Shown here: one piece after another, positions 12,908 to 64,000 of the stretch
How positions within the stretch are numbered: the stretch's first letter is position 1
Layout: every line of letters starts with the position of its first letter
Virus record (IMG/VR): IMGVR_UViG_3300009788_000095
Coordinates: 33,540-97,539 of that record
DNA length: 64,000 nt
Source: a virus
Direction: 5' to 3' (one strand)
Notes under the pieces: generated by a model
Seen by the model: only the letters and a program-made list of their open reading frames with translations
Told to the model about the DNA's origin: nothing
Database searches by the model: none
Position numbers and translations under genes: made by a program

Positions 12908-13197
12908 TAAATATTGTTTCTGTAATGTAAGTCTGTAGCCTGAGTAACAAAACTATAAATGTTTTTTAAAAGGTTAGCATCGTAGTAAGCATCTGGCTCT
13001 GGATGAAAACAAAACTGTCTAGAATCAGGGTGTCCACACCATCTCACTACACCAATTAAATTCCTTTTAAGGGCTGTCAAGTAGCAACCCCATATAGGTG
13101 TTTCTCTATCTGCAGGACTTGAATGCTGCACAAACCTGATAATTTCATAATCAGTTTTCAAGCCTTCTGGTGGTAACTTTAATTCTTTCAACATCAT
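12904..13197 (-). CDS. Unknown protein (97 aa)
   Basis: Last gene of the leftward group; ATG at 13197 overlaps the stop of the nuclease gene upstream. Mixed sequence with Cys, His and Trp in the middle (IGVVRWCGHPDSRQFCFHPEPDAYYD), perhaps a beta-rich domain. No family recognised. The shared start/stop with the nuclease suggests the two products act together. Confidence 0.65.
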   Translation of the reverse strand: MMLKELKLPPEGLKTDYEIIRFVQHSSPADRETPIWGCYLTALKRNLIGVVRWCGHPDSRQFCFHPEPDAYYDANLLKNIYSFVTQATDLHYRNNIY

Positions 13198-13964
13198 TAG
13201 CGTACCTCTCTTTTTTTAATATCTTCTTTTAATAGTAATTCAACCTCTTTATCCATATTTTTAACTGGCATAATTATATAAGGTGAATTTTTTGGAAAAT
13301 GAATTAAGCACCCATCATGTAATTGTATATTGAAGTTAGATTTCAGTATGTTTTTATAAAACCCTAACTGAAGAGAATATTTATTAAACTCACAGTTATC
13401 AAAACCAGACAGTACCCCTAACATACTATCAAAACGGTTATCTCGTTTGATATTTTTATTTGTTTTCCAATCGACAATAAAATAAATGCCTGTTTCTTTA
13501 TTTCTACATAAACAATCTATTGTTCCAGCAACGTTATACTCTTTATGAGCTACCATAAGTTCAGTCTCTAGGATATCAACCTTATTTTTAAATGGATCCA
13601 GGAATTTATGAAATTGACTTATTCTATACCTAATATCTGTTACAGGTAGTGTAATCTTACTATATTTCAAAAATAGATTAATATAGTAGTGTAACTCTTT
13701 ACCTATTACAATTGAATAATCTTTTTTTATAAGCCAGTTTTCTTTTATTTCGTCTGTGCTTATTCCTTCTTCATCAGCTTTTATCTTAGCCCAGTAATCA
13801 GTTTTAAATTCAGGGGTATATTTATTTAGTATATCACTAACAGCCTCGTATTGGTTTTCTCGTACATAGTAAGTATGCGTATCTGGAAGAAAATTAATAT
13901 GTGGGTTTTTAAAATTCAATGTTTCCTTTTCCTTAGTATCATTGTATAATACAGGCACTTCCAT
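13197..13964 (-). CDS. PD-(D/E)XK nuclease of the RecB/Cas4 type (255 aa)
   Basis: All motifs of the RecB-like nuclease fold are present in order: GKELH with His at 92; ETELMV and 'AGTID' with Asp at 150; 'VDWK' with Asp 165 and Lys 167; and 'QLGFY' (Gln 199, Tyr 203). These residues hold the metal ions that cut DNA. The length suits a single-domain exonuclease, as in phage recombination or DNA-processing enzymes. There is no helicase part and no Cys cluster of the Cas4 iron-sulphur type. ATG at 13964 has only a distant binding site. It overlaps the gene at 12904-13197 and may use it as a partner. Confidence 0.8.
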   Translation of the reverse strand: MEVPVLYNDTKEKETLNFKNPHINFLPDTHTYYVRENQYEAVSDILNKYTPEFKTDYWAKIKADEEGISTDEIKENWLIKKDYSIVIGKELHYYINLFLKYSKITLPVTDIRYRISQFHKFLDPFKNKVDILETELMVAHKEYNVAGTIDCLCRNKETGIYFIVDWKTNKNIKRDNRFDSMLGVLSGFDNCEFNKYSLQLGFYKNILKSNFNIQLHDGCLIHFPKNSPYIIMPVKNMDKEVELLLKEDIKKREVR

Positions 13965-28908: not shown

Positions 28909-28972
28909 AGGGTAGGGGCTTGAGTAGTGATGCTCAACGCAAGGGTTGATTAGGGAGCTAAAAGGAAATTTT
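28889..28972 (+). ncRNA. Candidate omega-RNA / HEARO-type structured region
   Basis: Three nested hairpins lie between the previous gene and the IscB start: CTACCTTTA/TAAAGGGTAG (about 28894-28914), TTGAG/CTCAA (about 28920-28937) and CAAC/GTTG (about 28935-28948), ending at TTAGGGAGCTAAAAGG. IscB nucleases use an RNA encoded just upstream of the gene, with the guide at its 5' end, which would fall in the end of the preceding gene. The exact ends and guide cannot be set by eye, and the RNA may extend into the N-terminal coding region of iscB. Confidence 0.45.
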
Positions 28973-47479: not shown

Positions 47480-50400
47480 ATGCCTGAAGAATTAATACGT
47501 ATTGATTTAACCGAGATGTCTGAGCTTAGGGACCTAGTTCAATCTTTACGTGGTATAAAAGATGTCTTTTTAACTTTCTCAAAAGCCGTGAGTACTCCGT
47601 CCGGAGGTAAAGCTACAGTAGGGGAAATATCAATTAAAAACCTCATTAAAAAGTTTGACCAAGAGTTTAGTGCTTTCACTAAAAAGTTTGGAGAAGGTGC
47701 TAAGGAGTTTAAGGTTAAAGGTATTGATGAGGCTCGCCGTAAAATTCAAGGTTTTTCCGGATCTATCGGTAAAATGGTCCAGGCCGTAGGAGAAATAGAT
47801 AAATCTATAAAATCTATAACAGCAGCAAGTCTTAAACTTAAAAAATCACCGGAACTTAAAAAAGCTAGAGATACCCTCGAAAAAGAATTAAATAATATTT
47901 TTACAAAGTATATGTCTTTAAATGTTGATGATGTTATTAGAACAGCTGAAAAAACAGGGAAAAAATTAAATGATTATTTTAAAACTATAAATGATAGATT
48001 GGCTGAAACTGGTAAGGGGATAGAAAAACAGATTCAAGATTTACCAAAACCTAAAGCTAAGGTTACTAAAGGTAGTCAGGGAGTTGTAGGAAAGGCTAAA
48101 GAAGGTATTAAGAAAATAGAAGAAAAAGAACAGACTTATATTTCAGAGCTGGACGAAAGAGTAACAGGTACCCTAGATGTTTTACATAAGAGATCTATAG
48201 ATCAAATAGATGCTTTGATTAAAGAAGTAAGAGGCACTACTCCTGCGGGGGCTACTGCGAGATTTGCTGAGGCAGGGAGAACGGGTGTTTTAAAAACAAT
48301 CAGCGCTATTAAGAAAGGTATTCAGATATCTCAGAAAGGGTTAACTAAGTTAGTAGATAAGGCTCTAAATTTACAGAAATTAAATGAAGTGATAGGTAGG
48401 AGTACAAAACAAGTTCAAAGACTTGAAAACGAGATTAAAAATATAGAGAGAACTATACAACCTGAGGAAGCTGAGGGTATTATAGCAAGACGGGAACGAT
48501 GGATAACAGCATTAAATAACCAGATTAAAAAGTTTACGGAAGCACGCACTACAGTCTGGAATGAAATAAGTAAGAAGTTGTCAAGTGCTGCTATAGGCGA
48601 TGTCAAAGAATTTGCAAAACTGTTAGAGACAATAAATGATATACGTTTCTACAGTAGACTTACACGTAGATTAGAAAGAAGGGGGATTTCTCCAGAATCT
48701 TTAAATCGTGTTAGAACAACATTCGGGGCATTTGAGTTTGAGGGGAAATTTTATGAGAATATTAATTTAATAACAAAGGGTCTTATTGCTACTGCTAAGA
48801 CCAGTGTAGAAGAAGTAGGTTTTGCTATCAGTGAGCAGATAGGCCAGTATGGAAAAACTGTAACAAAATTACGTTTGGGCTTTACGAGAGGAAGAGCCCC
48901 TAGAGAAATGTTTAAAGTTACAGAAGCTATTTCTGGTATTACACGAGGTTTAGGCGGATTACCTGGTGCTAAGTTTGGTAAGGTATCGGCAGGGGCAAAA
49001 GAGGATGTTGTTGGAAAATTATTAAACAGTATAGCTATGCAGGTAGCTCAACGAGCAAAGTCTGAGGTTAGTGTAAGCGGAATGGCAGTGAGCGGTTTAG
49101 ATGTAGAGAAAGCGGCTGATGAAATAGCTACAGCTATTATTACTCCTTTTTCAGGTTATTTGTTAGCTAAAAGGCCGGAGATAGGAAAAGCGGTTATACC
49201 CTCAGGAAGACCAGATTTAATGAAGCTAGATGATCTTGCCAGGTATATGGTTAGAGAAGCAATGCCTACGGCTATGAGAAAGAAGTTTCAGGTTACCATA
49301 AGTAAATTTTTTGAGCAAGCAGGTGATATAGGTAGAATAAAAACTGAATTTATGAGGGTTATGGGTATGGTAGGACCTGCTGAAACAGCAGGTGCAAGTT
49401 ATGAAGGTTATATACGGGAGATGGAAGCACAGGCTAAACTATTTATCGATCAACAAGAGTATACACGAGAGTTTGCGCCGACTATACAAGCAGCTATAGA
49501 TGCTTATATATCCGGAGGAAGTCAGGTATTTGAAAGAGTTGTAAATTTATTAAAGATACGAACACAGAAGTTTTTAGTTGAAATAATAAAGCTTATTCAG
49601 AATAGGGTTCAGTTACCTATTGCTGAAGCTATGGCTAAGTATAGAAAAGAAGTACAGCAGAGATTTGTTGAGATGCTGGTAGCGGGATTTAGGAAAGAAC
49701 AGGGAAAAGTACAAAAGTTAGCATCCGGTAGGGCGATGCAGTCTGGACTAATAAGCGGCGCATCGGCTACTGAAGAACAGTGGACAGCACCTTCTGCATT
49801 TTCGATTACAACTCCAGGACAGACACCAAAGATAGAAAGAGAGCTTAGGAGTATGATATTCAACCTGATGTCTTATTCCCTTAGGGGTAAGTCGCTAAAG
49901 GGCACTAGGTTTATCTCTGATTTTGTTCCAAAGATTTTAAAAGAAACGGAAGCTGCAGAAGTAGGTATGCCTGGTAAGCAATTAATAACAACACAGGCCC
50001 TAATAGAGAGAATAAAGACATCAAAAGGGGAGGATGCAGAACAAGCAAAAAGACTTATTGAACAGGTTACGGTGTTACCGGAAGAGGAGTTTAAAAGATT
50101 TAAATTTATAGCAGAGACCCTTAAGTTATACATTACAAAAAAAGGTGAGTTTACTAAAAGAGGGCAGGAGATGATGAAGCGTGTTATGGGAAATGCTAGA
50201 AGACTAACCAGAGGTGGCGGTATTTCTACACAATATCAATCTTTCTTGAAAGTGATGTTTGAGGAGGTTTTAAATATAGAGCGAGAAAGTGTTTTTGCTC
50301 AGATGATAGATCCTGCACAGATGGAGGCATTTTTATCTCATGAAAAGGTAGCGTCTCAAAAATTAGTAGCTAATATAGTTAGTAGGATAGAAAGGTTTCC

Positions 50401-53400
50401 GAAGGGTAAAATGAAAACAGGCCTTTTGACTTATGCTGATATGAAAGAGAGACAGAGAAAAATTGCGGAAGAAAAGTTAAAGCGGGTAGGTGATATTATA
50501 AAGAAATATACGGCTATTGGATTTTCACCAACTCTCATTAGGAGACTAATTGCTACGACTGAAAAAGAACAGGAAGTTTTTGATAGAGAAGTTGTGGCGT
50601 TAGAGAATGTAATTAAAAGAGGCGGTGCTGTAGCGTATGAGTATTTTCCTACGCAGCAGATTGTAGAAAAACATAGGCAGGAAGCATTAGCTATCAGGGG
50701 GCTTGAAGAGGCTGAGAATGTAAGTAATAAAAGACTACAGAGAGCTTTTCAGAAAATCAGTAAAGTATTTCAGGAAGGTGCAGGTTTTAAAGAGATAAGA
50801 CAAATGATATCAGATGTTTATAAAAGAGGAGATAGAGAAACTGTATCTCGCTACGATAAGGCTATAACCGCACTATCCTCTATACATAAAGAAAACATAC
50901 AGAATGTTGGTAAAATACTTATTCCTGCAATAGTGCAGTTTTTTGTAGGCGATATGGAGAACTTGGAGCAAGTATTAAGAACATTAGCTTTAATATCGGG
51001 AGGAGCTGCTACCGCAGAAAGGTACGGGTATATAAGGTCTTTAGTTGGTGAATTTTTAGGAATTTCACGAAAAGAGTACGGGCGTTTAGATAAATCTTTA
51101 AAATCAGGGAATAAGCAGGCAGTAAAGGCAGTTCGGGATAGATTAGTGACTTTATTTACTCCGAAGATAATGGATCTTGGAAAAAGTTTGGAGGATTTTT
51201 ATATACAGATGAGTGCAGACTTAGCTAATCTTGTTACTACAAACTTAGTTAGTTGGTTTACTGCTCAGAAAGAAGGGTTGGGTAAAACATTCGGTGCAAT
51301 AGCGATGCGTGTAAGACAGCTAGGCAGGATGCGTGTTAAAGGTGAAACTATAGGTATGATAGAGCCGTCAGGATTCTTACCAGGAACTACCGGAGAAATA
51401 CCTATTGAAACTATAAGACAAGAACAAAGATTATTAGGAGCAAGAGGAAGAAAACCGACAGGGGAGGTACCTGTTTCTTATGCACCGGCGGTTAAAGGGC
51501 TAGATGATATTCTTAGGGAGTTAACTGAAGAATTTAAACTAACTAAAGAGGCTGTGTCAGTACTTCGTGCCTTTATGGAAACTAAATTTTCAGGAAGAGA
51601 GGTTGTGGCTATACGTGGTAGAGCAGGAGTAACTACTCCAGGAAGAGGCGGGCCTTCAGCTTTTGGTGCTTTTGCAGGTAAAGATATTGAATATGGTTTA
51701 CAAAATATAGTAAAAGATTACATGAAACGGCTAGGCTATACTGTTGAGGGTAAAGCAGCAACAACTGGAACTAAAATACATGATATCTTAGAAGGTGTTT
51801 TTTTAGAGTACTCAAAGCGTATCGGAACTCAGATGGTAACTGAACAACCAGTAACAACTGTAGGTACTAGAGAAGGCGCTGCTGCTAAAACATCATTATT
51901 GGGTTTTGGTAGAATTGATATACTTGGTATATTTAAAGGTTACGGTGAGATATTTAAGGCATTAGGGGCTATGCCTGCTTTAGTAGATATTAAGACAGTA
52001 ACTCGTCTTGAGGCTTTTGATGCAGAGGGATTTAAGACTCAGATTAGTGCGTATGTAGAAATGTTTAAAGTTTTGGTAAAGATGAATCCTGATAAATATC
52101 CTGAACTACAAGATGCTTTAAAACTAATGGGCGGTAGGGAAGTTACTGCTGTACGAAACTCCATTGTAAATATTCAAAGTATTGTTAAGGATATTACGCA
52201 GTTACAAGCTGCGGCTCTTGTTATAGATAGGGAGGCATTTGAGGCAGCTATTAAAAAAGCCGGTTTTAAGAGTATTGATCAACTAAGGTTTTTGGTATTA
52301 GCCGGTAAAATAACTAACGAGCAGGTGAAACGACTTATAACGATTGTTAATCAGGTAGGTAAGGTTGAGGTTTTTGGTTTAAAAGATTTGCCTGATATTG
52401 AGAGATTGATGATTCCTGCTTATAGAGCAATAGTGGCTTTTGAACAAGTTAATAAAGTGTTAGGTAATATTTCCGGAGAAATAACAAAGAGGTTTGTAGA
52501 ATATAAAGGTAGACGTGTAGAGCATATAGACGAGGCTCTTCTTGCTAAAAATTTAGGGGAGCTAGGGTTGCCGTTTATTAAAGATGCGGAAAAGCTAAAA
52601 AGGGTCGCAAAAGAACAAAAGGTATCTATGGGAGAAGTAAAGGATGCTATAAAAAGAGCAACTGTAACGGTAACTAGCCAAGTTCCGGAACGTGAATTTA
52701 AGGATTTTTATGCACAGTTAAAAGAGAGGTTACTGACACAATTAAAAACTTTAACTGGTTTTTCTAATATAAAACAGTATTTAGGTGAATATATCGGTAG
52801 GCAGCAGATAGGTGGTAGGGCAGGTGTTGCTGCATTGCCAGCACCAGGAAGGGTAGGGGTAGAAAAAGAGAGAGTGCAAGTATCAGCTGAAACAGCAAAA
52901 ATGACGGGTGAAGAAGCAAAGGCTTACGGAAACATTATAGGAAGTGTTGAAACTTTAACCGGTAAGTTAAAAGAAAAGACCGGCGCTCTTGAAGCAGAGA
53001 TGGCTATTTTAAAGGAAGAAGCTACTATTTTTGTTTCAATTACACAGACAGCGGAAAGTTTGGTTAAGTACCTGAGAGGTACAGAGAAATTATCTTCTGT
53101 AATTAAATCAGCTTCACAGGTTCTTAGCTTGTTTGGACTGAGTGAGAAAGAGGTAGGAAAAGTAGTTAAAAACTTAGGAAAAACTGTCGGAAAGATGGAA
53201 GAGTTAAAATCAGCAACATCTAAGGTAAAAGATACTGTGGAAGGTACAGCTCAGGGATTTGATAGAGTAAATAAAAGTGCAACTGATTCGTCCAAAACTA
53301 TAGATGATATGCTGGGCGGTATGTTTAATTTAGGTAGCGGGACTGCGAGTGTTGAAGAAAAGATTAAGTCAATGACAAGTGAAGCAGGCAGGTACGCTAC

Positions 53401-56400
53401 TATGATGAACAGTGCTGTTACTTTTTCTAAAAATGAATCTGCAAATAGAGAGCAGATTAAAGCTAAGCTTAGTGATGCTTTATCACATATTGAAAAATAC
53501 GAACAGTTAGCGAATAGGCTTTCAGAACATTCTAAAAATAATGTAGATGCAGCTAAAGCGGAATTTACAGCACGTCAGAGAATTGCACAGATATACGAGC
53601 GTGCTTCTGAGTTTGGATTAAGGACGGAATCTGAACTAGCAGAGAAGATAGATCTTAGAAATAAAAAACAACGAGATTTATCAAGACAAGCTAATGAGTA
53701 CTTTACACAGTTAGGTAGGATCAGAACTGCATCTGCAGACGCTAACATACCCCTACATGAAAGACTTGAGAGTCTTAGAGAGGCTATACGTGCCTTAAAT
53801 CAGTATGCAGACGTAGTTAAATCGCTTTCTCAGGTTGAGGGAGAGGGCTTAGCAACAGCATCTAGACGACAACAGTTTGCAATGCGTAGATCTCAGATAG
53901 GGGAAGCTTTAGGGGGATTACAAGCAGAGTTTAAGAGAGGGGCTGATCCTGCAGGGGAATTAACGAGACATATAGGGAAGCAGATATCGCAGTTTAATGA
54001 AGAAATGTTATTATCTGGAAGAGCTTATGCTCAATTAACTAAAGAATCAGGAGGGGCTATAAGAGAAAACTTAAATGTGATTCGTAAAGTAACTGATCAA
54101 CAAGGTAAGCAGCTACTTATGGTTGAAGGTATAGCAACAGCTCAGGGTAAAGTAACTACACAGGTAAAAGAGACAGCATCTGTGTATGCTGGAACTGTAG
54201 CTAATCAGATGAAAAATATTATGGCTAGACTGGCGAAGTGGGGGAGTGGTGCTTTTTTATATTTTGGTGTTATGCGTGGTGCTAGGGATGCTGTTCGTGC
54301 AATAACAGAAATGGAAAGCGCTATTACTTCGTTAAGGCAAGTTATGAATCAGTCTAATACTGATTTTATGGCTATGTCAGAGCAAGCTTACGCTCTAGCT
54401 GTGTCCTACGCAACACCTATTAAAGATTTAATGAAAACTATGTTAGAGTTTGCGCGGCAGGGCCTTAACCAGGAAGAGGTAATAGAGGCTTCACGGGTAG
54501 CTACTCTAGCAGCTAATGTAACAGTCTTAAATGCAACGCTGGCTATGGACACACTTACAGCTGCTACACGTCAGTATAATATATCTGCAATGGATTCTAT
54601 AAAAGTTCTTGATGCCTGGAATTTAGTAGCTAATAGGAATGCTGTTACTGCAAAGGATTTGGGTGGGGCGATGAAACAGGCAGGTAGTATAGCTAAATTA
54701 ATGGGGCTTGGTTTTGAGGAACTCACAGGTATCATGGCTGCATTACAGGAGACTACCAGAAGAGGTGGACCTACAATCGGACGTGCAATTAGGTTTATGT
54801 TAGTTCATTTAAGAACAGATGAAACAGAGAAAGCTTTAACTGATTTAGGTATTTCTATAAGAAAGACAGCCGGAGAATATAGAACAGCTTCATCTGTATT
54901 TAAGGAAGTAGCTGAGAGGTGGAGAGAATTAACAAGTGCTCAAAAGTACCAAGTTTCTTATGCTATAGGGCACGTAAGGTTTGGTGCATTTGTAGCTGCA
55001 ATGTTTGAGAATTGGGCTAAGGTTACTAAAGCTACAACAGAAGCTACTTACGCTCATGGATCTGCAATGGCAGAAAATGAAATAGCTATGCAGGCGTTTA
55101 AGAAACAAGTAACAGGTTTACGTAATGAATGGGAGGCTTTTATTTATTCTTTTGGTAGAACAGGTATCTTAGGTATACTACGTGGATTTCTTTCAATAGG
55201 TAAGGGTATCTTAGGTGTATTTGATAAACTGCCAGGGGTTATAAAGACTACAATTTCTGTCTTGGGTACATCTGCTGTTTTATTTATGGGACTTAGTCGA
55301 TTTTTACGATGGTATTTTAGTATTGATTTATCAGATGTTATTCGCAGGTGGGGATTAAGAGCGGCAGGAAAAGAGGCGGCAAAAACTATAGGTTTTTTAA
55401 AGAATGTTTCTTCAGTAGCTATTGGTAAAAATATATCTGAGACAGAAACACTAGCAATGGCACAAAACACAGTAACAGGATCTGTGCAGGGAACAAATGT
55501 TTTATATACTACGAGTCTTGGCCTCCTTAACTCTATGACTTTAGCTACAAGGGAGTTAGCGGTTGCTCAGGGTTTAGTTACTGGGGGCACGACAAAAGTA
55601 GCTATGCAGACGTTACCCTCTACCCTTGTGATGCAAAGAGGGAGACTTGCACCTACTTCAGCAAGAACGATAAAGGAGAGCGTAGCAGTAGCGGGTACGG
55701 GTGCAGCAGTCAAAAGATCATTATTTCAGAAGAGTACTTTTAGAGAAACATTTCGTGCAGCTAGGGTATCCGGGAAAGCTACAGGAAATAGATGGGGTAA
55801 TGCTTTTATGGCTGCAACCTGGTTAAGGGTTAAGGGTTTAGGTAAGGGATCTTTTTGGAAGGGTTTAGGTTTAGCTTTAACTAAGGTAGGAGGTACTTTA
55901 GCAGGATTTTTAACTAGTCCTCTTGGGATTGTAGCGGCAGCTATAGCAGGTACTACAGCAGCCCTATGGGGATTTAGGAAAGTAACAGATAACACATCTA
56001 AAATTATAATTGAAAAAAACAAAAAGTTAATTAACGAACTTCAGCAGTCTTTAAATGAGGCTAAAATAGCTATTGTTTCTTATACAACGGCTTTAGAGAA
56101 TATCGCTACGGGTGCTAGGGTTGATTTAAGTGCTATTGAAAGGGAGAAGAAATTAAGATCAGATATAGCTTCCCGGTTTCCTGGGTTAGTGAAAGGTTAT
56201 ACAGATTACGGGGATGCTATTCTTGAGTCTTCAAACAGGGTTGGTGTACTTAAAAAAAGAATGGAAGAGTTAGCCACAGTAAAAGCTGTAGAACTAATAG
56301 GTATACAGTTAGAGGAAGTTAGTGTTATATTAAGAGATCTATCAGACCCGAGAGTAGGCAGAAATATTTTAACTTATTTACCGGCCAGTCTGGGTTTGTT

Positions 56401-59400
56401 GGATAGTACTATAGACAAACTAAGAAAAAATATTAAAGAATATAATAATCTACGAGAAGCTTACAATGAGGCATTTAAAAGAGGTTATGATGTTACTACT
56501 ATTAGAAAAAATATGGGTGAGATTGCTGAGGAGATTAGAGAGGGAACCAAGGTAGTAAATACTTCTTTTATTCAGGCAGAAAATAGAATGAGAAGTATAG
56601 CAAAGATGGGCGGAACTGCTGCAGTTGAGGCAATTGGGAGGGCATTACAAACAAACTCATCAAATCTGGAAATTTATATAACTAGTATAGTTCAAAGTTT
56701 AGGTACGGAAGATGTTTTAAAAGGATTCAGAGCATTTTTTGTTAAAACATTTGGCCCGGACTTAGGTACGATTATAAAAGATTCTGTTAGGAATATACCT
56801 TTACCAGCTTTAAAAGAGTCGGCGGAGGCTATATCAAAAGCTATTTCCGATTCTTTATTAACAAATATAGACGTTAAGGGGTCTACCCGAAAGGCAGTTA
56901 GAAAAATAGTTAAAGATTTAGAAGATGCGATTAGGGGTGAAGATTATCAGGAAGCTTTGTTATCGGCTATGGAAGGTATATATGAAATCAGGGGAAAACT
57001 AAGCGATAATGCGGTACAGAAATTAACTAGTAAGATGGGCGAGTTTGCTATAGTTTTCGCAAAAAAGATAGAAGGCGATGCGAAAGAACATAGAAAAATG
57101 TTTATTAAGACTACCGAGGGGTATGCTATAATAGATGAAGAAGCTATAGCAAACATATTTGGAGGTAAAGATATAGATTTAGAGCTTATTAAAAAGAAAA
57201 AAGAATTTATAATGAAATACAAAAAGTCTGGCGATGTGATTGATATGATTGAAGAAATGCAGCGAGAGAAAGGTAAGTGGGAAGGAGATACATACGTTAT
57301 TAAAGTAGGTATTAAACCAGATGAAGTATACTTTAATAAACTTAAAGTGGCGATGGACGCTGTTAAGGGTTATTCTGCATACCTTAAAGTGATGGATCAG
57401 TATTTAACTGGAATTAGTGCAACAGAAAAAAACAGAGTAAGTATGATGAAGGATGCTTATTCTATAGGTACGAAGTCAGCAAAAGAATACGCTAATATAC
57501 TTGATGCTTTGGAAATTAAAATCAAAAAGAACTTAAGTAGGTTTGGTGGTTTAATGGGTGCTGGTCCGGAATTTAAAAGGGAGATGCTTGATATTACAAG
57601 ATTAAGAGCAGAAGCAGAATTAACTGTTAATAAGTATAATCAGTGGCGTTCCTTAAAGAATAGAATGTTAGCAGATCCTGCAGCATTTCAAAAGGATACA
57701 CACGCAGTAAGAACCTTTAAGAATTTAATAGGAGATATCCAGGCTAGTTATAAAACATTACCGAGAGAAGCGCAGGAAATGTACAGGGGTGTTTTTAAAG
57801 ATATAGATAAAGTTTTAATCGATGAAGACCAGGTAGAGAAGAATAAAGAAAAGATTTTAGGTGCAATTAGGGATATAGCTGATAAGGCTAAATATAAAGG
57901 TGTATTAACTTTTGAAACAATTGATACACGTGTTTTTGATAAAGCCATAGATGAAATATATAAAAAGTTTAGGGACACTTCAGCCCTTACATCAAAAGAC
58001 GTAGAAAGTATAATAAATAAAATCCCTATAGATACAGGGGCTGTAATTAATGCTGAAATAGATAATATGAGAAAAAAAATAAATACGATGAAGAAAGAGC
58101 AGTTTCCCGGGCTATTCGGTACTATTTCAGAAAGTGACATAAATTATTTTAAACAGCTAAATACGCTATATGGAGAATTAGAGAAAAAAAGAAGAACTGC
58201 TAAGGTTTTAGGTAAGGCTTTACCATTTATTCCTAAAAAAACTGATTTAGATGCAGTTAGTAAATCTCTAGATAGTTTAATAAAAGAACATGGAGCAAGA
58301 CTTGCATCAGGAGTTTCAGTAGATATTAGTAAAAGTGTTTTACCGCGTTTGAAAAAAGAGTTAGAAGCAGTGCAACTGATGAAAATGGAATTTAAATTAG
58401 ATGAAGCACAGGCCGCTAAGCAGGCAGTAGGTGCGGCTGAATTATTTAAATCCGCTTTTACAAGAGAATTACATGAGAGGGTAGGAGAAGAAGCAGGAGG
58501 AAAACTTGCTTTAGGTACAGTAAAGGGGCTTCAGCGTGGTTTAACGGTTTTAGGAGGTACTAATTTTTATAGACTATTAGCAGGTACAATGAAGATAGAT
58601 AAAGTAGCTAATCAGTTAATAAGATCAGGTCAAAAAGCATTTGAGAAAGCTAGTAGAGGACGAGGTGGTACTGATACGATGACTGCTATACTAGGTTTAA
58701 CTCAACAGAATATAGGCGAAGCATTAAGGACAGCTAATTTAGGAGGAGTAGCTATAAACGCAGCTAGTCAGATATGGGATGAATATTTAAGCAGGGCCAG
58801 GGACGGAAGTACAGAGAGTATTGCAGTTTTTACAGAAACAATAAAAGCTTTTTCTAAGGCCGCAGGGAATACAACGGGAGAAATGTTAGACAACATAACA
58901 AAACAAATGGAAGAGGGCATGAGGCCTGATGTAGCTTTTATGGATATGGTTAAAAGCCTTGGTTTAGCCCCTGAGGATTTAAGACTTATACAACAACAAT
59001 CAACAAAAATGCTTTCGACTATTACAGCTATACAGAAGGGTATGGGAGATGCAGCGAGTGACTACTCTAAGTCTTTAACAGAGTCAGGTAAAAAGTCTAG
59101 ACTGGAAATAGTTAGTTTGTTAAGTGAGTCTTTAAATATAGCTAAATATTATGAAAAAAGAAGAGACGAGGCTATAAAGGACATGAAGGAGTATGTAACT
59201 ACTCTAGTAAGCTATAGTAAAGAATTGACTTCTGGAGTAGGTGTGTCTTTTGCTGAATTTTCAGAAAAGATGGGTGGGCATCTTGGTGGTATACGTAAGA
59301 TGTTAAATATATTTTCAAAATCTACTGAAGCAGAAGTAAGAGGGTGGGCTAAAGCTTTAAAGGAGATTTTAGGTAGAAAGTTTGTAGAGGCTTTTACAGG

Positions 59401-62400
59401 TTTTAATATCCAGGCGATAAAGCAGTCTATTAATGCAATAAGGGATGCCTTAGCTACTGAAGAATTTGAAGAAACCGGTTACGCTGGCATGACAGCATTG
59501 GCGAGTCAAATAAAGAAATTAGGTATAGCTTTAGCTAAAACAGCAATAAAGTTCCCAGAAGTTAAAACGTGGGGTAAAATGGTTAAGGAGGCTTTTGATA
59601 AAAAGACAGTGGCTGAAGCGGAAGCAATGGGAAAAGCATTAATAAAGTTAGGAAATGAAACAGATGAGTTACGTAAGAGGCGGGATTATTTAAAAAAAGG
59701 ACCACCTGCAGGGGCAAAGGTTATATTTTTTGATCCTGCTAGTGTTAACGAATTAGATGAACAAATAAAACAGAATGAGATACGCTACACTAGGTTAAAA
59801 ACTCAACTAGTAGCAGGATCTACAGCAATGAAAAGTTATTTTGAGGATACGTCGAAAGAATTTAATGAGTTATTTAGGGTACTTGGTTATACAGATAAAC
59901 AGATTAAAGTATCTGATAAAAATTTACAGGCTTTAGGCTTAACAGGTATACGGGCAGCTTATGCTGTTATTCAGCAGCAGATTAGTTGGATTAAAATGAA
60001 TAAGTCTTTATCTGATTTTGTAACAGTTGCTGACCTGTACACAGATATAGGTTTGGTAAATAGAATAGGTGAATTGACTCCTGTTATTTCTGCTACAGAA
60101 GAAGTGCTTACCGCATTAAAAAAGGAGTATATAAGTAACACTGAAAAGTTAAGGGAATACACGGAACAAACAGAAGATTTTATTAAAGTGCAAGAGAGAC
60201 AAAAAATAATAGTGGAAACGGTAAAAGATGTAGAGAACTGGAGGGAAAGATTAGTAGGGTTTGAAAGTATGAGATCTTCGTATTCAGATTTAAATAAAAG
60301 TTTAAATTTATTAGATGCTCAAACAAAGGTATATCAGTCTAGTTTAGATTCTGTAAGTAAAACTGCTGATTATTTTAAAACAACAATTGATAAACTGATT
60401 GAATCTTCATTACGTTCCGGAGAGTGGGGTTGGGATAAAGTTCCGCCACTTATAAAAAGCTCTATAAGTCAGCTAGAGTCTTACTACTCAGAACTGTTAG
60501 CTTTACAGAGACAGCAGGATGTTATTTATAACCAGGTAGATAGACTAGGCGATGCATGGGCGGATGCACTGCATGCCCCTGATGAAGAACAAACACTTTT
60601 GAAGTCTATAACAGATAGTTTTAAACAATTAAGAAGAGATGCATCAAGAAATTTTATACAGCCTGTTCTTGATGACTGGAAGAACTTATTTGCTGGAACT
60701 GTACCTATCAAAGATATACAAGTAGATGCAAGTGCGGAAATAAAGTTTATAGTAGCAGAGATTAAAAGATTAGAAGAAAATATTAGAAGCGAGAAAGGTG
60801 TATTCGAGGAAGTTTTTTTAGGTGATCTAAAAAAGGCATTAGGTATTTTAAATGAGAACGACACTATACAAGCACTTAATAGCATGAGTAAGGTTATTAA
60901 CAATATATTACTGGGTAAGGGGGGTGTGGTAAGTGCACCTGTACCCCTTAAAAAGGCAAGTGGGGTTGTACTAACTGCTGCTCAGGGAGTAGTGGATGGA
61001 AGGTCTGGAGGTCAGTTAGGTCACGCTGTAGCTAAGGAAGGTAGTGTTTTAGCTGAACTTCATCCAGGAGAAATAGTTGTACCAGCTCGGTTAGCAGGAG
61101 GGGTACCCTCTTACATAACTAATCAATTACCTGTTTATGATGGATTTTCTTCAGGGATACGTATGGCTGAGGGTGGTGTATTAACCGAAGAAGAAAATCT
61201 TAAAAAAGCAAAACAGGTTGCTGATAGTTTATTTAATAAAGGTCTTTTTCTGGAAGCTGTATCTGCGTATAGAGGTATACTAAAGGTAAGGCCTAATGAT
61301 CGGGATGTTAATTTAAACCTTAATAGATTACTAAGTCAAAATGCCTTTAGTGATCCTTCTATAAAATTAGAAAGAGAAAAAGATATAGCTAAACACCCCG
61401 AGATAGAAGAAAAAATAAAGGAGGCTAATCTTCTCTACAGATCACAGGAGTATAAGAAGGCGCTTGATATTTTTACAGGCATAAGGTTTAAATACAAAGA
61501 TATTGAACAAGATAGTAAGTGGCTTACGTATGGTTTTATAGAGAGGATAAAGACATTTATTGAATATAATAAACCCGGGGATGTAGCAGGTCTGATTAAG
61601 GAAAAGCCGGAATTAGGTAAGGCTCTTGATCCGCGGGATATGAATTTAGAGGATGTAGAGTTGTTGGCACGAAGTTCTTCAAGTAAAAAAGAATTGAAAT
61701 CTATACTGAGTGAGATACCCCTGGATAACCATAATGTTCGTTTAGGTATGGAATCTTTGATAAAGGAGAAATCTTATTTTTATAAATTATTTGAAAGGCT
61801 AAAAAAATGGGGTGCAGTTAGGTCTGAAGTAAGTTTCGCAAAAGAAATGATGAAGTCACTTAATAAAGAAGCTGTAGTTGATTACTTAGGGATAGAAAAA
61901 TTTAAGAGATATTTTCCTAAGATACCAATTACTAGTCAACAATTTGCTTCAGGTATTAGAATGGTTGAAGGTGGACAGTTACCCTTACCCAGAGCAGCAG
62001 TAAGAGGAAGATTTACACAGGAGGAAAAAGAGAAACAAGCTGAGAATCGTTGGAAAGTAATGGCAAAGATAGCTTCTGCAGCTTGGAAGTTGGGCGGAAA
62101 AGGTGTTACAGGGTTTATGGGTTTAATAAGTTCTGCTCTTAAGAAAGAGATAACTCTTCCTGAAATGAATAATCAGTTAACTAAAGATCAGTTAGAGATG
62201 AGGGACGCGATAATGCGTGGTTTCGGAGGTAAGTATAAAACAGCAGATACGAAAACTGACCTTAATTTTTGGAAAGATGTATATAGGGGTTTAGGGATTA
62301 TGGGTAAAGGTCTTTCTACGGGATGGAAGGGATTTATTAAATTTATAAAAGATCATATGAGTTTAAAAGAAATATATTTAGGTGCTAGGGCACAGCAAGG

Positions 62401-64000
62401 GCAACCAACTGCACTTGATATAGCTGCTGGTCGTGCTTCTGGTTTACGTTTATCTGAAGGTGGACAGTTAGGCCATGCTGTTGCCGCTGCGGGTGAAGTA
62501 GCTGCAACATTACATCCAGGTGAGATAGTTGTACCGGCTCATCTTGCAGGGGGAGTGCCGTATAATATTGTAAATAAGTTACCGGTTTATGACGGGTTTT
62601 CTTCCGGTGTACGTATGCAGGGCGGAGGTAGTATAGGGGGGGTTACTGAAGTTAAAAGTGAATTAGATAAATCTTTTGCTAAGTTAGTGATAGGTTTTAA
62701 AGCAGCTGCATTGAACATGGAAGTATCAGATAAGGTTTTTAGACAGAATTTGGAAGCTCAACGGAGTACTAACAGGAGCATGGAAGATGTAGGCAGGAAC
62801 ATGGAGGTAGTAAGTAAGGGTTATAAAAAAAGAGCTGCTGTTTCTGCTTCTCCTGAGGATAGTAGGAGTAGTGCTATACGCATAGATACAGACAGTATGG
62901 TTTCTAAAGGCAGTGTAGGTGGAGGAGGAGCTTCTCTAGAGATAGGTATGGTTAAAGCTACAGATGTTATAAAAGGATTTAATACTATTCTAAGTAAACA
63001 GGAAGACAAAGTTAAGGAGTTAACAGACGCTTATACAAAACTTAAACAAGAAACAGGCGATCTTAAAACAGCTTCTAAAGAGGCGAAGGAGGCATTAGCA
63101 AAAGCTGATTGGGAGAAAGCTATTAATCAAGTTGGATTAGGTTTATTGCATGCGACTGAATTTGTTGCTAAGAAGGCTGAGCCTGTGCTTGTGGGTGGTT
63201 TTCAGGCAATAGTAGCCGGTATGAGCGGAAGTGCTGAAGTGTTAGCTATGGCTAGAGAAAAGTTAGGGGTAGAAATGGGTAAGCGTGAAAAGCAAGTTAG
63301 AGAAGAATTAGCAGGGAAAGCTGTAAAGAAAGAGGAAAAGAAACAAGTAACAAGAAGAGCTACTGAAATAACAGAAACAATAGGTATTCAAAAAGCCTCC
63401 GGAATAAAAATGCATTTAGGAAAGGCAGAAGGGGAGCGAAAAGACATAAGCCTATCAGCAGAAGACATGGTAAAGACAGTAATGCTAAGTACAGAGGACT
63501 ATGCAAATGCCTTGTCTAATTTAAGAGACCCCGACACTGTAGATGCCCTGAATGCTTTACAAATTCAAATGATAGGGGTTAGCGATAAAGCTTACAAAAC
63601 AGCAGAGGCTGAACTTGTGAATGCTAAGGCTAAAAAAGAAGCTGAAACAGCGACTCAGAAAGCTAGTGAAAAACAGTTAGAAGCTGCGAAAAAAAGTGAT
63701 GCTTTTGGAAAAGCTATGGGAACGGTTATTGCAACGCTGGAGGTTGGTATAGGTCAGCAAATGATGAAGGATTTTAAAACATTAGCAGAAGATATAAGTT
63801 TAACAATCGGCGGAATAACACTTCAAGGGACAGGTAAGACAACAGGTACCCGAATGAAAGAAGCCGGATTAGAAGACTTTCAGATGAAGACTGCTGCAGA
63901 TAGGCCAGAAGTGCAAGAATCTGTTTCTGGAGGAGGTGCGGTTGGTGCGGTTGTAGGTAAGCAGCTAGGTACTACTGCGGGTGCAGCTCTAGGGGCTGCA
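47480..64000 (+). CDS. Giant tape measure protein, 3' end cut by window edge (at least 5,507 aa)
   Basis: From ATG 47480 one frame stays open to base 64000. Its start follows the chaperone-like genes, the usual place. Regions seen: helical start with coiled coils (1-700); a PD-(D/E)XK nuclease motif set (about 1430-1530); the phage tape-measure core (about 2256-2620), including 'EFARQGLNQEEV', 'AKLMGLGFEELTG' and a hydrophobic membrane stretch; a second hydrophobic stretch (near 2790-2840); long helical repeats; TPR-like helices (about 4570-4670); and two copies of 'HPGEIVVPA' (His 4528 and 5012). Length predicts a tail of at least about 0.8 micrometre. Start has only a weak AGGG site. Confidence 0.85.
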   Translation, partial: MPEELIRIDLTEMSELRDLVQSLRGIKDVFLTFSKAVSTPSGGKATVGEISIKNLIKKFDQEFSAFTKKFGEGAKEFKVKGIDEARRKIQGFSGSIGKMVQAVGEIDKSIKSITAASLKLKKSPELKKARDTLEKELNNIFTKYMSLNVDDVIRTAEKTGKKLNDYFKTINDRLAETGKGIEKQIQDLPKPKAKVTKGSQGVVGKAKEGIKKIEEKEQTYISELDERVTGTLDVLHKRSIDQIDALIKEVRGTTPAGATARFAEAGRTGVLKTISAIKKGIQISQKGLTKLVDKALNLQKLNEVIGRSTKQVQRLENEIKNIERTIQPEEAEGIIARRERWITALNNQIKKFTEARTTVWNEISKKLSSAAIGDVKEFAKLLETINDIRFYSRLTRRLERRGISPESLNRVRTTFGAFEFEGKFYENINLITKGLIATAKTSVEEVGFAISEQIGQYGKTVTKLRLGFTRGRAPREMFKVTEAISGITRGLGGLPGAKFGKVSAGAKEDVVGKLLNSIAMQVAQRAKSEVSVSGMAVSGLDVEKAADEIATAIITPFSGYLLAKRPEIGKAVIPSGRPDLMKLDDLARYMVREAMPTAMRKKFQVTISKFFEQAGDIGRIKTEFMRVMGMVGPAETAGASYEGYIREMEAQAKLFIDQQEYTREFAPTIQAAIDAYISGGSQVFERVVNLLKIRTQKFLVEIIKLIQNRVQLPIAEAMAKYRKEVQQRFVEMLVAGFRKEQGKVQKLASGRAMQSGLISGASATEEQWTAPSAFSITTPGQTPKIERELRSMIFNLMSYSLRGKSLKGTRFISDFVPKILKETEAAEVGMPGKQLITTQALIERIKTSKGEDAEQAKRLIEQVTVLPEEEFKRFKFIAETLKLYITKKGEFTKRGQEMMKRVMGNARRLTRGGGISTQYQSFLKVMFEEVLNIERESVFAQMIDPAQMEAFLSHEKVASQKLVANIVSRIERFPKGKMKTGLLTYADMKERQRKIAEEKLKRVGDIIKKYTAIGFSPTLIRRLIATTEKEQEVFDREVVALENVIKRGGAVAYEYFPTQQIVEKHRQEALAIRGLEEAENVSNKRLQRAFQKISKVFQEGAGFKEIRQMISDVYKRGDRETVSRYDKAITALSSIHKENIQNVGKILIPAIVQFFVGDMENLEQVLRTLALISGGAATAERYGYIRSLVGEFLGISRKEYGRLDKSLKSGNKQAVKAVRDRLVTLFTPKIMDLGKSLEDFYIQMSADLANLVTTNLVSWFTAQKEGLGKTFGAIAMRVRQLGRMRVKGETIGMIEPSGFLPGTTGEIPIETIRQEQRLLGARGRKPTGEVPVSYAPAVKGLDDILRELTEEFKLTKEAVSVLRAFMETKFSGREVVAIRGRAGVTTPGRGGPSAFGAFAGKDIEYGLQNIVKDYMKRLGYTVEGKAATTGTKIHDILEGVFLEYSKRIGTQMVTEQPVTTVGTREGAAAKTSLLGFGRIDILGIFKGYGEIFKALGAMPALVDIKTVTRLEAFDAEGFKTQISAYVEMFKVLVKMNPDKYPELQDALKLMGGREVTAVRNSIVNIQSIVKDITQLQAAALVIDREAFEAAIKKAGFKSIDQLRFLVLAGKITNEQVKRLITIVNQVGKVEVFGLKDLPDIERLMIPAYRAIVAFEQVNKVLGNISGEITKRFVEYKGRRVEHIDEALLAKNLGELGLPFIKDAEKLKRVAKEQKVSMGEVKDAIKRATVTVTSQVPEREFKDFYAQLKERLLTQLKTLTGFSNIKQYLGEYIGRQQIGGRAGVAALPAPGRVGVEKERVQVSAETAKMTGEEAKAYGNIIGSVETLTGKLKEKTGALEAEMAILKEEATIFVSITQTAESLVKYLRGTEKLSSVIKSASQVLSLFGLSEKEVGKVVKNLGKTVGKMEELKSATSKVKDTVEGTAQGFDRVNKSATDSSKTIDDMLGGMFNLGSGTASVEEKIKSMTSEAGRYATMMNSAVTFSKNESANREQIKAKLSDALSHIEKYEQLANRLSEHSKNNVDAAKAEFTARQRIAQIYERASEFGLRTESELAEKIDLRNKKQRDLSRQANEYFTQLGRIRTASADANIPLHERLESLREAIRALNQYADVVKSLSQVEGEGLATASRRQQFAMRRSQIGEALGGLQAEFKRGADPAGELTRHIGKQISQFNEEMLLSGRAYAQLTKESGGAIRENLNVIRKVTDQQGKQLLMVEGIATAQGKVTTQVKETASVYAGTVANQMKNIMARLAKWGSGAFLYFGVMRGARDAVRAITEMESAITSLRQVMNQSNTDFMAMSEQAYALAVSYATPIKDLMKTMLEFARQGLNQEEVIEASRVATLAANVTVLNATLAMDTLTAATRQYNISAMDSIKVLDAWNLVANRNAVTAKDLGGAMKQAGSIAKLMGLGFEELTGIMAALQETTRRGGPTIGRAIRFMLVHLRTDETEKALTDLGISIRKTAGEYRTASSVFKEVAERWRELTSAQKYQVSYAIGHVRFGAFVAAMFENWAKVTKATTEATYAHGSAMAENEIAMQAFKKQVTGLRNEWEAFIYSFGRTGILGILRGFLSIGKGILGVFDKLPGVIKTTISVLGTSAVLFMGLSRFLRWYFSIDLSDVIRRWGLRAAGKEAAKTIGFLKNVSSVAIGKNISETETLAMAQNTVTGSVQGTNVLYTTSLGLLNSMTLATRELAVAQGLVTGGTTKVAMQTLPSTLVMQRGRLAPTSARTIKESVAVAGTGAAVKRSLFQKSTFRETFRAARVSGKATGNRWGNAFMAATWLRVKGLGKGSFWKGLGLALTKVGGTLAGFLTSPLGIVAAAIAGTTAALWGFRKVTDNTSKIIIEKNKKLINELQQSLNEAKIAIVSYTTALENIATGARVDLSAIEREKKLRSDIASRFPGLVKGYTDYGDAILESSNRVGVLKKRMEELATVKAVELIGIQLEEVSVILRDLSDPRVGRNILTYLPASLGLLDSTIDKLRKNIKEYNNLREAYNEAFKRGYDVTTIRKNMGEIAEEIREGTKVVNTSFIQAENRMRSIAKMGGTAAVEAIGRALQTNSSNLEIYITSIVQSLGTEDVLKGFRAFFVKTFGPDLGTIIKDSVRNIPLPALKESAEAISKAISDSLLTNIDVKGSTRKAVRKIVKDLEDAIRGEDYQEALLSAMEGIYEIRGKLSDNAVQKLTSKMGEFAIVFAKKIEGDAKEHRKMFIKTTEGYAIIDEEAIANIFGGKDIDLELIKKKKEFIMKYKKSGDVIDMIEEMQREKGKWEGDTYVIKVGIKPDEVYFNKLKVAMDAVKGYSAYLKVMDQYLTGISATEKNRVSMMKDAYSIGTKSAKEYANILDALEIKIKKNLSRFGGLMGAGPEFKREMLDITRLRAEAELTVNKYNQWRSLKNRMLADPAAFQKDTHAVRTFKNLIGDIQASYKTLPREAQEMYRGVFKDIDKVLIDEDQVEKNKEKILGAIRDIADKAKYKGVLTFETIDTRVFDKAIDEIYKKFRDTSALTSKDVESIINKIPIDTGAVINAEIDNMRKKINTMKKEQFPGLFGTISESDINYFKQLNTLYGELEKKRRTAKVLGKALPFIPKKTDLDAVSKSLDSLIKEHGARLASGVSVDISKSVLPRLKKELEAVQLMKMEFKLDEAQAAKQAVGAAELFKSAFTRELHERVGEEAGGKLALGTVKGLQRGLTVLGGTNFYRLLAGTMKIDKVANQLIRSGQKAFEKASRGRGGTDTMTAILGLTQQNIGEALRTANLGGVAINAASQIWDEYLSRARDGSTESIAVFTETIKAFSKAAGNTTGEMLDNITKQMEEGMRPDVAFMDMVKSLGLAPEDLRLIQQQSTKMLSTITAIQKGMGDAASDYSKSLTESGKKSRLEIVSLLSESLNIAKYYEKRRDEAIKDMKEYVTTLVSYSKELTSGVGVSFAEFSEKMGGHLGGIRKMLNIFSKSTEAEVRGWAKALKEILGRKFVEAFTGFNIQAIKQSINAIRDALATEEFEETGYAGMTALASQIKKLGIALAKTAIKFPEVKTWGKMVKEAFDKKTVAEAEAMGKALIKLGNETDELRKRRDYLKKGPPAGAKVIFFDPASVNELDEQIKQNEIRYTRLKTQLVAGSTAMKSYFEDTSKEFNELFRVLGYTDKQIKVSDKNLQALGLTGIRAAYAVIQQQISWIKMNKSLSDFVTVADLYTDIGLVNRIGELTPVISATEEVLTALKKEYISNTEKLREYTEQTEDFIKVQERQKIIVETVKDVENWRERLVGFESMRSSYSDLNKSLNLLDAQTKVYQSSLDSVSKTADYFKTTIDKLIESSLRSGEWGWDKVPPLIKSSISQLESYYSELLALQRQQDVIYNQVDRLGDAWADALHAPDEEQTLLKSITDSFKQLRRDASRNFIQPVLDDWKNLFAGTVPIKDIQVDASAEIKFIVAEIKRLEENIRSEKGVFEEVFLGDLKKALGILNENDTIQALNSMSKVINNILLGKGGVVSAPVPLKKASGVVLTAAQGVVDGRSGGQLGHAVAKEGSVLAELHPGEIVVPARLAGGVPSYITNQLPVYDGFSSGIRMAEGGVLTEEENLKKAKQVADSLFNKGLFLEAVSAYRGILKVRPNDRDVNLNLNRLLSQNAFSDPSIKLEREKDIAKHPEIEEKIKEANLLYRSQEYKKALDIFTGIRFKYKDIEQDSKWLTYGFIERIKTFIEYNKPGDVAGLIKEKPELGKALDPRDMNLEDVELLARSSSSKKELKSILSEIPLDNHNVRLGMESLIKEKSYFYKLFERLKKWGAVRSEVSFAKEMMKSLNKEAVVDYLGIEKFKRYFPKIPITSQQFASGIRMVEGGQLPLPRAAVRGRFTQEEKEKQAENRWKVMAKIASAAWKLGGKGVTGFMGLISSALKKEITLPEMNNQLTKDQLEMRDAIMRGFGGKYKTADTKTDLNFWKDVYRGLGIMGKGLSTGWKGFIKFIKDHMSLKEIYLGARAQQGQPTALDIAAGRASGLRLSEGGQLGHAVAAAGEVAATLHPGEIVVPAHLAGGVPYNIVNKLPVYDGFSSGVRMQGGGSIGGVTEVKSELDKSFAKLVIGFKAAALNMEVSDKVFRQNLEAQRSTNRSMEDVGRNMEVVSKGYKKRAAVSASPEDSRSSAIRIDTDSMVSKGSVGGGGASLEIGMVKATDVIKGFNTILSKQEDKVKELTDAYTKLKQETGDLKTASKEAKEALAKADWEKAINQVGLGLLHATEFVAKKAEPVLVGGFQAIVAGMSGSAEVLAMAREKLGVEMGKREKQVREELAGKAVKKEEKKQVTRRATEITETIGIQKASGIKMHLGKAEGERKDISLSAEDMVKTVMLSTEDYANALSNLRDPDTVDALNALQIQMIGVSDKAYKTAEAELVNAKAKKEAETATQKASEKQLEAAKKSDAFGKAMGTVIATLEVGIGQQMMKDFKTLAEDISLTIGGITLQGTGKTTGTRMKEAGLEDFQMKTAADRPEVQESVSGGGAVGAVVGKQLGTTAGAALGAA
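51767..52060 (+). other. RecB-type nuclease domain inside the tape measure
   Basis: Within the tape measure frame: 'GTKIH' (His 1434), 'GFGRIDILG' (Asp 1480), 'LVDIKTV' (Asp 1503, Lys 1505) and 'QISAY' (Gln 1521, Tyr 1525). These are the GxxxH, GxxD, DxK and QxxxY motifs of RecB/Cas4-like nucleases in correct order and spacing, the same set as in the separate gene at 13197-13964. Confidence 0.7.

What the first reader, a model, noticed from the sequence alone, without database searches (positions are those of the whole stretch)
51690..52130. RecB/Cas4-type nuclease motif set embedded in the tape measure
GxxxH, GxxD, DxK and QxxxY appear in order within 92 residues. Tape measures are known to carry muralytic or peptidase domains, but I am not aware of a well-described RecB-like nuclease in one. 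As the tape measure is expelled into the cell ahead of DNA, such a domain could cut host or rival DNA on entry, or trim incoming ends.
Basis: partly seen in the sequence, partly recalled or inferred. Interest (0 to 1): 0.85.

Follow-up and report, generated by a model that had tools for sequence, protein, structure and literature searches.

The report
Nuclease-like domain inside giant tape measure
A phage's giant tail-ruler protein, the part normally pushed into the host ahead of the DNA, appears to carry a DNA-cutting (RecB/Cas4-type) domain in an extra-long front section that related phages mostly lack, which would give the phage a DNA enzyme it carries in with it.

Summary
The motif set is real and in frame. 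In a 5,507-residue tape-measure ORF (47480-64000, cut by the contig end; about 6,430 codons in a sister contig) stand G1430-x3-H1434, G1477-R-I-D1480, D1503-x-K1505 and Q1521-x3-Y1525. One profile supports more than chance: PHROG 298 (phage RecB/PD-(D/E)XK exonuclease), E 9e-7 to 7e-6, with nothing comparable in reversed or shuffled copies. Pfam, NCBIfam, PADLOC, PDB sequences and my own small profiles do not detect it. Structure prediction failed (pLDDT 40 and 46; no closer relatives exist), so the fold is untested. The domain lies in an N-terminal extension of about 1,600-2,100 residues that nine isolated relatives lack. One environmental relative has a similar extension, with a zinc-peptidase-like HEMGH motif at nearly the same place. 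The phage also encodes a separate PHROG 298 exonuclease. Precedents: phage P23-45's 5,002-residue tape measure carries an N-terminal RNA polymerase; a Streptomyces injection-system effector related to tape measures carries a C-terminal endonuclease. Best reading: an enzyme-loaded tape measure whose nuclease is delivered with the DNA and acts at the entry site, probably on DNA ends. Catalysis, delivery and substrate are inferred. New variant of a known kind.

The parts
47480..64000 (+). giant tape measure protein ORF, 5' complete, 5,507 codons, truncated by the contig end; about 6,430 codons in the sister contig G001
51632..52129 (+). putative PD-(D/E)XK (RecB/Cas4-like, PHROG 298) nuclease domain, residues about 1385-1550 of the tape measure
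   Evidence: PHROG 298 E 9.4e-7 to 6.5e-6; motif set; Gly/Pro-rich, low helix propensity
51767..51781 (+). G1430-T-K-I-H1434 (GxxxH motif)
   Evidence: aligned with GxxxH of all 13 free-standing nucleases although not part of the search pattern
51908..51919 (+). G1477-R-I-D1480 (GxID motif)
51986..51994 (+). D1503-I-K1505 (DxK motif)
52040..52054 (+). Q1521-I-S-A-Y1525 (QxxxY motif)
47480..54079 (+). N-terminal extension (about residues 1-2200) preceding the conserved tape-measure core; the core lies at residues 31-660 in nine isolated relatives
54392..54955 (+). PhageMin_Tail (PF10145) core of the tape measure, residues 2305-2492
   Evidence: E 1.3e-27
13197..13964 (-). free-standing PHROG 298 exonuclease of the same phage (255 aa)
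   Evidence: E 1.7e-29; no BLAST similarity to the tape-measure domain

Best explanation
The tape measure of this long-tailed phage carries enzyme cargo. A PD-(D/E)XK nuclease domain of the phage RecB/PHROG 298 exonuclease class sits at about residues 1385-1550, in a long N-terminal extension ahead of the conserved tape-measure core. In siphophages where it is known, the C-terminus sits at the tail tip and the N-terminus at the head, next to the DNA. The tape would therefore leave tip-first, help make the entry channel, and bring the nuclease through last, just ahead of the phage DNA. There it would bind Mg2+ through D1480, D1503 and K1505 and cut DNA at the entry site. The most likely substrate is DNA ends: its own incoming ends for circularisation or recombination, or broken host or rival DNA. 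The phage's separate PHROG 298 enzyme would serve later, as P23-45 pairs a tape-fused virion RNA polymerase with a non-virion one. SHOWN here: motif set, profile similarity, tape-measure identity, extension, second exonuclease gene. INFERRED: fold, catalysis, orientation in this phage, delivery, substrate. My split: nuclease-derived domain 0.8; catalytically active 0.6; delivered and acting on DNA in the host 0.5; own ends 0.3, host or rival DNA 0.2.
For: PHROG 298 match, E 9.4e-7 to 6.5e-6, with clean reversed and shuffled controls, and again on the whole record, E 1.2e-5 in a 5,507-aa frame. All catalytic-class residues are present and in order. GxID-22-DxK-15-QxxxY scanned against 2.9 million viral contigs gave 24 in-frame matches besides this locus. 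19 are free-standing RecB/Cas4-type nucleases (several near-duplicates, and in some the matched GxID is not the family's canonical one). 18 of the 19 also have GxxxH upstream, against 1 of the 5 chance matches. A genuine free-standing nuclease (L186) has the same GxxxH-to-GxID spacing of 47. The profile of those nucleases matches the nuclease domains of AdnA/AdnB in the PDB. The domain region is among the most Gly/Pro-rich and least helix-prone of the protein. A second giant tape measure (G013, core near residue 2027) has HEMGH at residue 1285 of its own extension. Precedents: P23-45 tape-fused RNA polymerase (PMC10770324); Tme endonuclease (PMC11126660). N-terminus at the head, touching the tail completion protein that caps the DNA end, in 80alpha (PMC11661146); C-terminus at the tip (PMC7048315).
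Against: Pfam, NCBIfam, PADLOC and PDB sequence searches find no nuclease. HMMs and block matrices built here from 8-19 free-standing nucleases score the domain no better than shuffles. AlphaFold models have low confidence, pLDDT 39.5 alone and 46.0 with remote nucleases; Foldseek finds no PD-(D/E)XK match. No independent homologue of the domain exists in the collections searched, so selection on the residues cannot be measured. The sister contig has a paired indel giving an in-frame TAG at codon 1410 just before the domain, probably a sequence error but unresolved.
Confidence: 0.5

Rival explanations
1. A nuclease-derived domain that no longer cuts: it serves as a DNA-end-binding or structural module of the tape, for example holding or sensing the DNA terminus at the head end of the tail.
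For: The N-termini of siphophage tape measures contact the protein that caps the DNA end in the neck (PMC11661146). A free catalytic nuclease packed next to the phage's own DNA is risky. Inactive PD-(D/E)XK modules are common (general knowledge).
Against: All catalytic-class residues are intact, which a long-inactive module would tend to lose; only one independent sequence is available, so this argument is weak.
Confidence: 0.2
2. Chance resemblance: an ordinary helical and glycine-rich tape-measure segment that happens to show the four motifs and a local match to PHROG 298.
Against: PHROG 298 E about 1e-6 with clean controls; GxxxH lies outside the matched stretch but at a spacing seen in a true nuclease; location in a lineage-specific, less helical stretch.
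Confidence: 0.18
3. A weapon against the host or rivals: the nuclease is injected to degrade host chromosome, plasmids or prophage DNA, with the phage's own DNA protected.
For: Delivery with the tape; CIS tape-measure-related effectors act as toxins or endonucleases in the target cell (PMC11126660; PMC13277306).
Against: RecB/Cas4-class phage enzymes usually act on DNA ends in recombination (general knowledge); a handful of injected copies per cell; no self-protection system was looked for or found.
Confidence: 0.12

Closest known systems
Thermus phage P23-45 tape measure gp96 with fused virion RNA polymerase (PMC10770324)
   Same: Giant tape measure (5,002 aa) with a nucleic-acid enzyme in its N-terminal portion, a second free-standing enzyme of the same class in the genome, and relatives with and without the fusion.
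   Different: The enzyme is an RNA polymerase; its DxDGD motif is absent here. There the enzyme was crystallised, assayed and found in virions; here nothing is tested in the laboratory.
Tme, tape-measure-related endonuclease effector of the Streptomyces davawensis contractile injection system (PMC11126660)
   Same: Tape-measure-related protein that carries a DNase.
   Different: EndA-type (DRGH / H-N-N) nuclease at the C-terminus, in a DNA-less injection system; here PD-(D/E)XK-like, in the N-terminal third, in a phage.
PHROG 298 / crAss-like and mycobacteriophage RecB-like PD-(D/E)XK exonucleases
   Same: The only family that matches the domain significantly; same four motifs.
   Different: These are free-standing replication or recombination enzymes; none was found inside a tape measure. 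The TMP domain is too diverged for BLAST and lacks the Cys residues of the Fe-S members.
Tape measures with muralytic or peptidase domains (e.g. SPbeta YomI-like proteins)
   Same: Enzyme domains embedded in a tape measure; closest isolated relatives of this core (28% identity).
   Different: Those act on peptidoglycan and are annotated as transglycosylases; their cores start at residues 31-660, without the long extension.

Membership tests
PD-(D/E)XK nuclease, RecB/Cas4/PHROG 298 exonuclease class | Significant similarity to the family profile | tested here: met
   PHROG 298 E 9.4e-7 to 6.5e-6, controls clean; but no Pfam, NCBIfam or PADLOC match, and my own small profiles are not significant
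PD-(D/E)XK nuclease, RecB/Cas4/PHROG 298 exonuclease class | GxxxH, GxxD, (D/E)xK and QxxxY in order with family-like spacing | tested here: met
PD-(D/E)XK nuclease, RecB/Cas4/PHROG 298 exonuclease class | alpha-beta-beta-beta-alpha-beta core fold | tested here: inconclusive
   AlphaFold pLDDT 39.5 and 46.0 with 13 remote nucleases; helix-strand-strand-helix order fits but confidence is too low; Foldseek found no match
PD-(D/E)XK nuclease, RecB/Cas4/PHROG 298 exonuclease class | Metal-dependent DNA cleavage | not testable with these tools
   needs biochemistry
Fe-S cluster subgroup (Cas4/AddB-like) | Conserved Cys flanking the nuclease core | tested here: not met
   no Cys in 5,507 residues
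Tailed-phage tape measure protein | Tape-measure core profile in a very long ORF in the late region | tested here: met
   PF10145 E 1.3e-27; thirteen tape-measure PHROGs, best 5e-84; terminase, portal and major head protein upstream
P23-45-type enzyme-tape measure fusion | Nucleic-acid enzyme in the N-terminal portion of a giant tape measure | tested here: met
   domain at 1385-1550 of about 6,430 residues, core at 2305-2492; enzyme identity by sequence only
P23-45-type enzyme-tape measure fusion | Two-barrel RNA polymerase signature DxDGD | tested here: not met
P23-45-type enzyme-tape measure fusion | Enzyme part present in virions as full-length tape measure | not testable with these tools
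   uncultured phage
Tme-like CIS effector | C-terminal EndA-type nuclease and DUF4157 | tested here: not met
   nuclease-like domain is in the N-terminal third and matches another superfamily; no DUF4157 in the Pfam scans of the window part

The most novel reading that the evidence does not exclude
Giant tape measures of an environmental siphophage lineage have an N-terminal cargo slot, some 650-770 residues ahead of the tape-measure core, that holds exchangeable enzymes (a RecB-type nuclease here, a zinc-peptidase-like domain in G013). The nuclease is injected ahead of the genome and acts on DNA at the moment of entry: the first virion-borne PD-(D/E)XK nuclease built into a phage tape measure.
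Probability: 0.3. Interest if true: 0.85.

Novelty: new variant of a known kind. Interest (0 to 1): 0.6.

Why it matters
If true, tape measures are not only rulers and channels but also carriers that place a DNA enzyme at the entry site with the genome. That would give a handle on an open question: what happens to phage DNA ends, and to host or rival DNA, in the first moments after entry. It would extend the single tested phage case (P23-45 RNA polymerase) to DNA processing. It would also connect phage tape measures with the tape-measure-related DNase effectors of contractile injection systems, and mirror the SNIPE defence, in which the host's own nuclease recognises the tape measure (PMC13190303).

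Tried and rejected
Single-sequence AlphaFold (pLDDT 39.5) and AlphaFold with 13 remote free-standing nucleases (46.0; Foldseek without meaningful hits): uninformative, not counted for or against. HMMs and a block matrix from free-standing nucleases: do not separate the domain from shuffles; reported against. Duplication of the phage's own exonuclease gene as recent origin: no BLAST similarity. TAG recoding as explanation of the sister contig's stop: rejected, because TAG ends 6 of 29 ORFs in the window. Homologues in 392 genomes of the phylum of a Planctomycetota MAG (candidate host phylum): four hits at E 0.004-0.01, the number expected by chance, none with the motif set. Weak FAD_binding_5 (PF00941, E 0.019-0.097, below cut-off) and aspartate racemase (E 0.04) matches: considered chance. 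One pattern scan was wasted by a miscounted spacer.

Full report
WHAT WAS CLAIMED.

The ORF starts at 47480 (+) and stays open to the end of the window, 5,507 codons. The window is the last 64 kb of a 97.5 kb viral record, G000, so the ORF is cut by the contig end. The motifs are at residues 1430-1434, 1477-1480, 1503-1505 and 1521-1525. A loose expression for the set hit 1 of 2,000 shuffles of the whole protein. That is not impressive by itself, given the freedom to choose a motif family.

THE PROTEIN IS A TAPE MEASURE. PF10145 matches residues 2305-2492 with E 1.3e-27, and thirteen PHROG tape-measure families match, the best with E 5e-84. Terminase, portal and major head protein lie upstream. 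A sister record from IMG/VR (G001, 180 kb) holds the rest of the gene: about 6,430 codons in all. At 1.5 A per residue (general knowledge) this would be a tail of nearly 1 micrometre, like that of P74-26 (PMC10034513).

EVIDENCE THAT THE MOTIFS MARK A NUCLEASE DOMAIN. (a) PHROG 298, annotated exonuclease, matches residues 1477-1539 with E 6.5e-6; trimmed queries give 2.1e-6 and 9.4e-7, while one reversed and two shuffled copies give nothing better than 0.058. Relatives of this phage's own PHROG 298 enzyme are annotated as PD-(D/E)XK superfamily exonuclease (crAss002, crAssphage ZA) and RecB-like exonuclease (mycobacteriophages). (b) GxxxH lies outside the matched stretch. A pattern for GxID-22-DxK-15-QxxxY scanned over the viral collection gave 27 loci. 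Besides the sister record, 24 are in frame: 19 are free-standing RecB/Cas4-type nucleases (several near-duplicates), of which 18 also have GxxxH upstream; of the 5 chance matches one has it. A caveat: in some of those families the matched GxID is not the canonical one. (c) The spacing of 47 between GxxxH and GxID, shorter than in most of them, occurs in a free-standing nuclease of another phage (L186). (d) The profile of these comparators (with the TMP domain as one of 14 rows) matches the nuclease domains of AdnA/AdnB in the PDB, which fixes their superfamily. (e) The region is among the most Gly/Pro-rich and least helix-prone of the protein.

EVIDENCE AGAINST. Pfam, NCBIfam, PADLOC and PDB sequences give no nuclease match. 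Profiles and a block matrix that I built from 8-19 free-standing nucleases score the domain within the range of shuffles. AlphaFold alone and with 13 remote nucleases gave pLDDT 39.5 and 46.0. The second model shows helix-strand-strand-helix in the expected order, but at that confidence, and with an alignment made of nucleases, it proves nothing; Foldseek finds no match. I put the chance that the domain is nuclease-derived at about 0.8.

CONSERVATION COULD NOT BE TESTED. The sister record differs from the window at 17 of 16,521 positions, so it is the same population and carries no information on selection. Eight of the 17 form a paired indel at 51700-51710 that puts TAG at codon 1410, just before the domain. 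TAG is an ordinary stop here (6 of 29 ORFs), so that copy would end at residue 1409. A sequencing or assembly error is the likeliest cause, but I cannot decide it. No further homologue turned up in the phage, viral or genome collections. The nearest other relative, G002 (terminase 65% identical, tail genes 53-69%), ends 380 codons into a tape measure whose start is already too diverged for BLAST.

WHERE THE DOMAIN SITS. In nine isolated phages with a related core (22-28% identity), the position equivalent to residue 2201 lies at residues 31-660, and none has the motif set. PHROG 298 does not match the tape measure of any of 11 isolate records or 26 viral relatives searched, although several have free-standing copies. 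This tape measure therefore has some 1,600-2,100 extra residues in front, and the nuclease-like domain is inside them. Among viral relatives found through the terminase, one (G013) has a comparable arrangement: a 4,535-codon ORF with the core near residue 2027 and WHEMGHVMD, a zinc-peptidase-like motif, at residue 1285. Pfam and PHROGs do not confirm a peptidase there, so this is a lead only. Nuclease and HEMGH lie about 770 and 660 residues ahead of the core position.

THE SAME PHAGE HAS A SECOND ENZYME OF THE CLASS. ORF 13197-13964 (-) is a free-standing PHROG 298 exonuclease, E 1.7e-29, not similar to the domain by BLAST, so not a recent duplicate.

MECHANISM. Established in other siphophages: in 80alpha the tape-measure N-termini touch the tail completion protein that caps the DNA end in the neck (PMC11661146), and the C-termini sit in the tip (PMC7048315); in lambda, host-protein labelling finds the tape measure at the inner membrane during genome injection (PMC13190303). 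By analogy, the N-terminal extension here would pass last, directly ahead of the DNA. A folded 18-20 kDa domain, threefold, does not fit a lumen of about 42 A side by side, so it would be staggered or partly unfolded until ejection (inference; a similar idea is voiced for a CIS effector, PMC13277306). P23-45 shows that the principle works: a 5,002-residue tape measure carries an N-terminal RNA polymerase, present in virions as part of the full-sized protein and proposed to work on the incoming DNA, while a second, non-virion polymerase serves later; some relatives lack the fusion (PMC10770324). Tme shows that a tape-measure-related protein can deliver a DNase (PMC11126660). My best explanation is an injected nuclease acting at the entry site, most likely on DNA ends. 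Attack on host or rival DNA is possible and equally untested. An inactive, DNA-binding module is the main structural rival.

HOST. Unknown. The closest relatives of the phage's DUF3326 gene are in Planctomycetota MAGs (54-58%), which is a hint only.

VERDICT. Observation confirmed; interpretation partly supported; a new variant of a known kind (enzyme-loaded tape measures). Interest 0.6: potentially striking, with a clear test, but resting on one sequence and one significant profile match.

Noticed in passing
28890-30319 (+): HEARO RNA (RF02033, 116.7 bits, E 2e-23) at 28890-29118 followed by an HNH ORF (PHROG 119, E 1e-61) that reads like IscB: an IscB/omega-RNA element a few hundred bases upstream of the ORF before the phage terminase gene.
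   Followed up: partly
27615-28628 (+): Actin-like protein matching Volactin (PF25216, E 4.6e-70), a family named from an archaeal protein, in a phage; with a ParB_N protein at 16447-17373 (-).
   Followed up: no
10473-11522 (+), 8763-9605 (+): DUF3326 protein (PF11805, E 3.6e-70; best relatives 54-58% in Planctomycetota MAGs) and a weak dihydroorotate-dehydrogenase-like protein: host-like metabolic genes in a phage.
   Followed up: partly
51700-51710 (+), residues 1407-1411: Sister record G001 has a paired one-base deletion and insertion here that creates TAG at codon 1410; the two records are otherwise nearly identical (9 other differences in 16.5 kb).
   Followed up: partly
L122 (G013:C1:24200-39428), residue 1285 of the 4,535-codon tape measure: WHEMGHVMD zinc-peptidase-like motif in the N-terminal extension of a related giant tape measure, at nearly the same distance from the core as the nuclease motifs here; no Pfam or PHROG confirmation.
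   Followed up: partly
L121 (G002:C1:8100-15824): The phage with a 65% identical terminase has neighbouring tail genes at 53-69% identity, but its tape-measure start shows no BLAST similarity to this one: the extension evolves or is exchanged much faster than its neighbours.
   Followed up: partly
19877-21082 (+): Weak match to the major tropism determinant N-terminal domain (PF18454, E 1.9e-4); a diversity-generating retroelement was not looked for.
   Followed up: no
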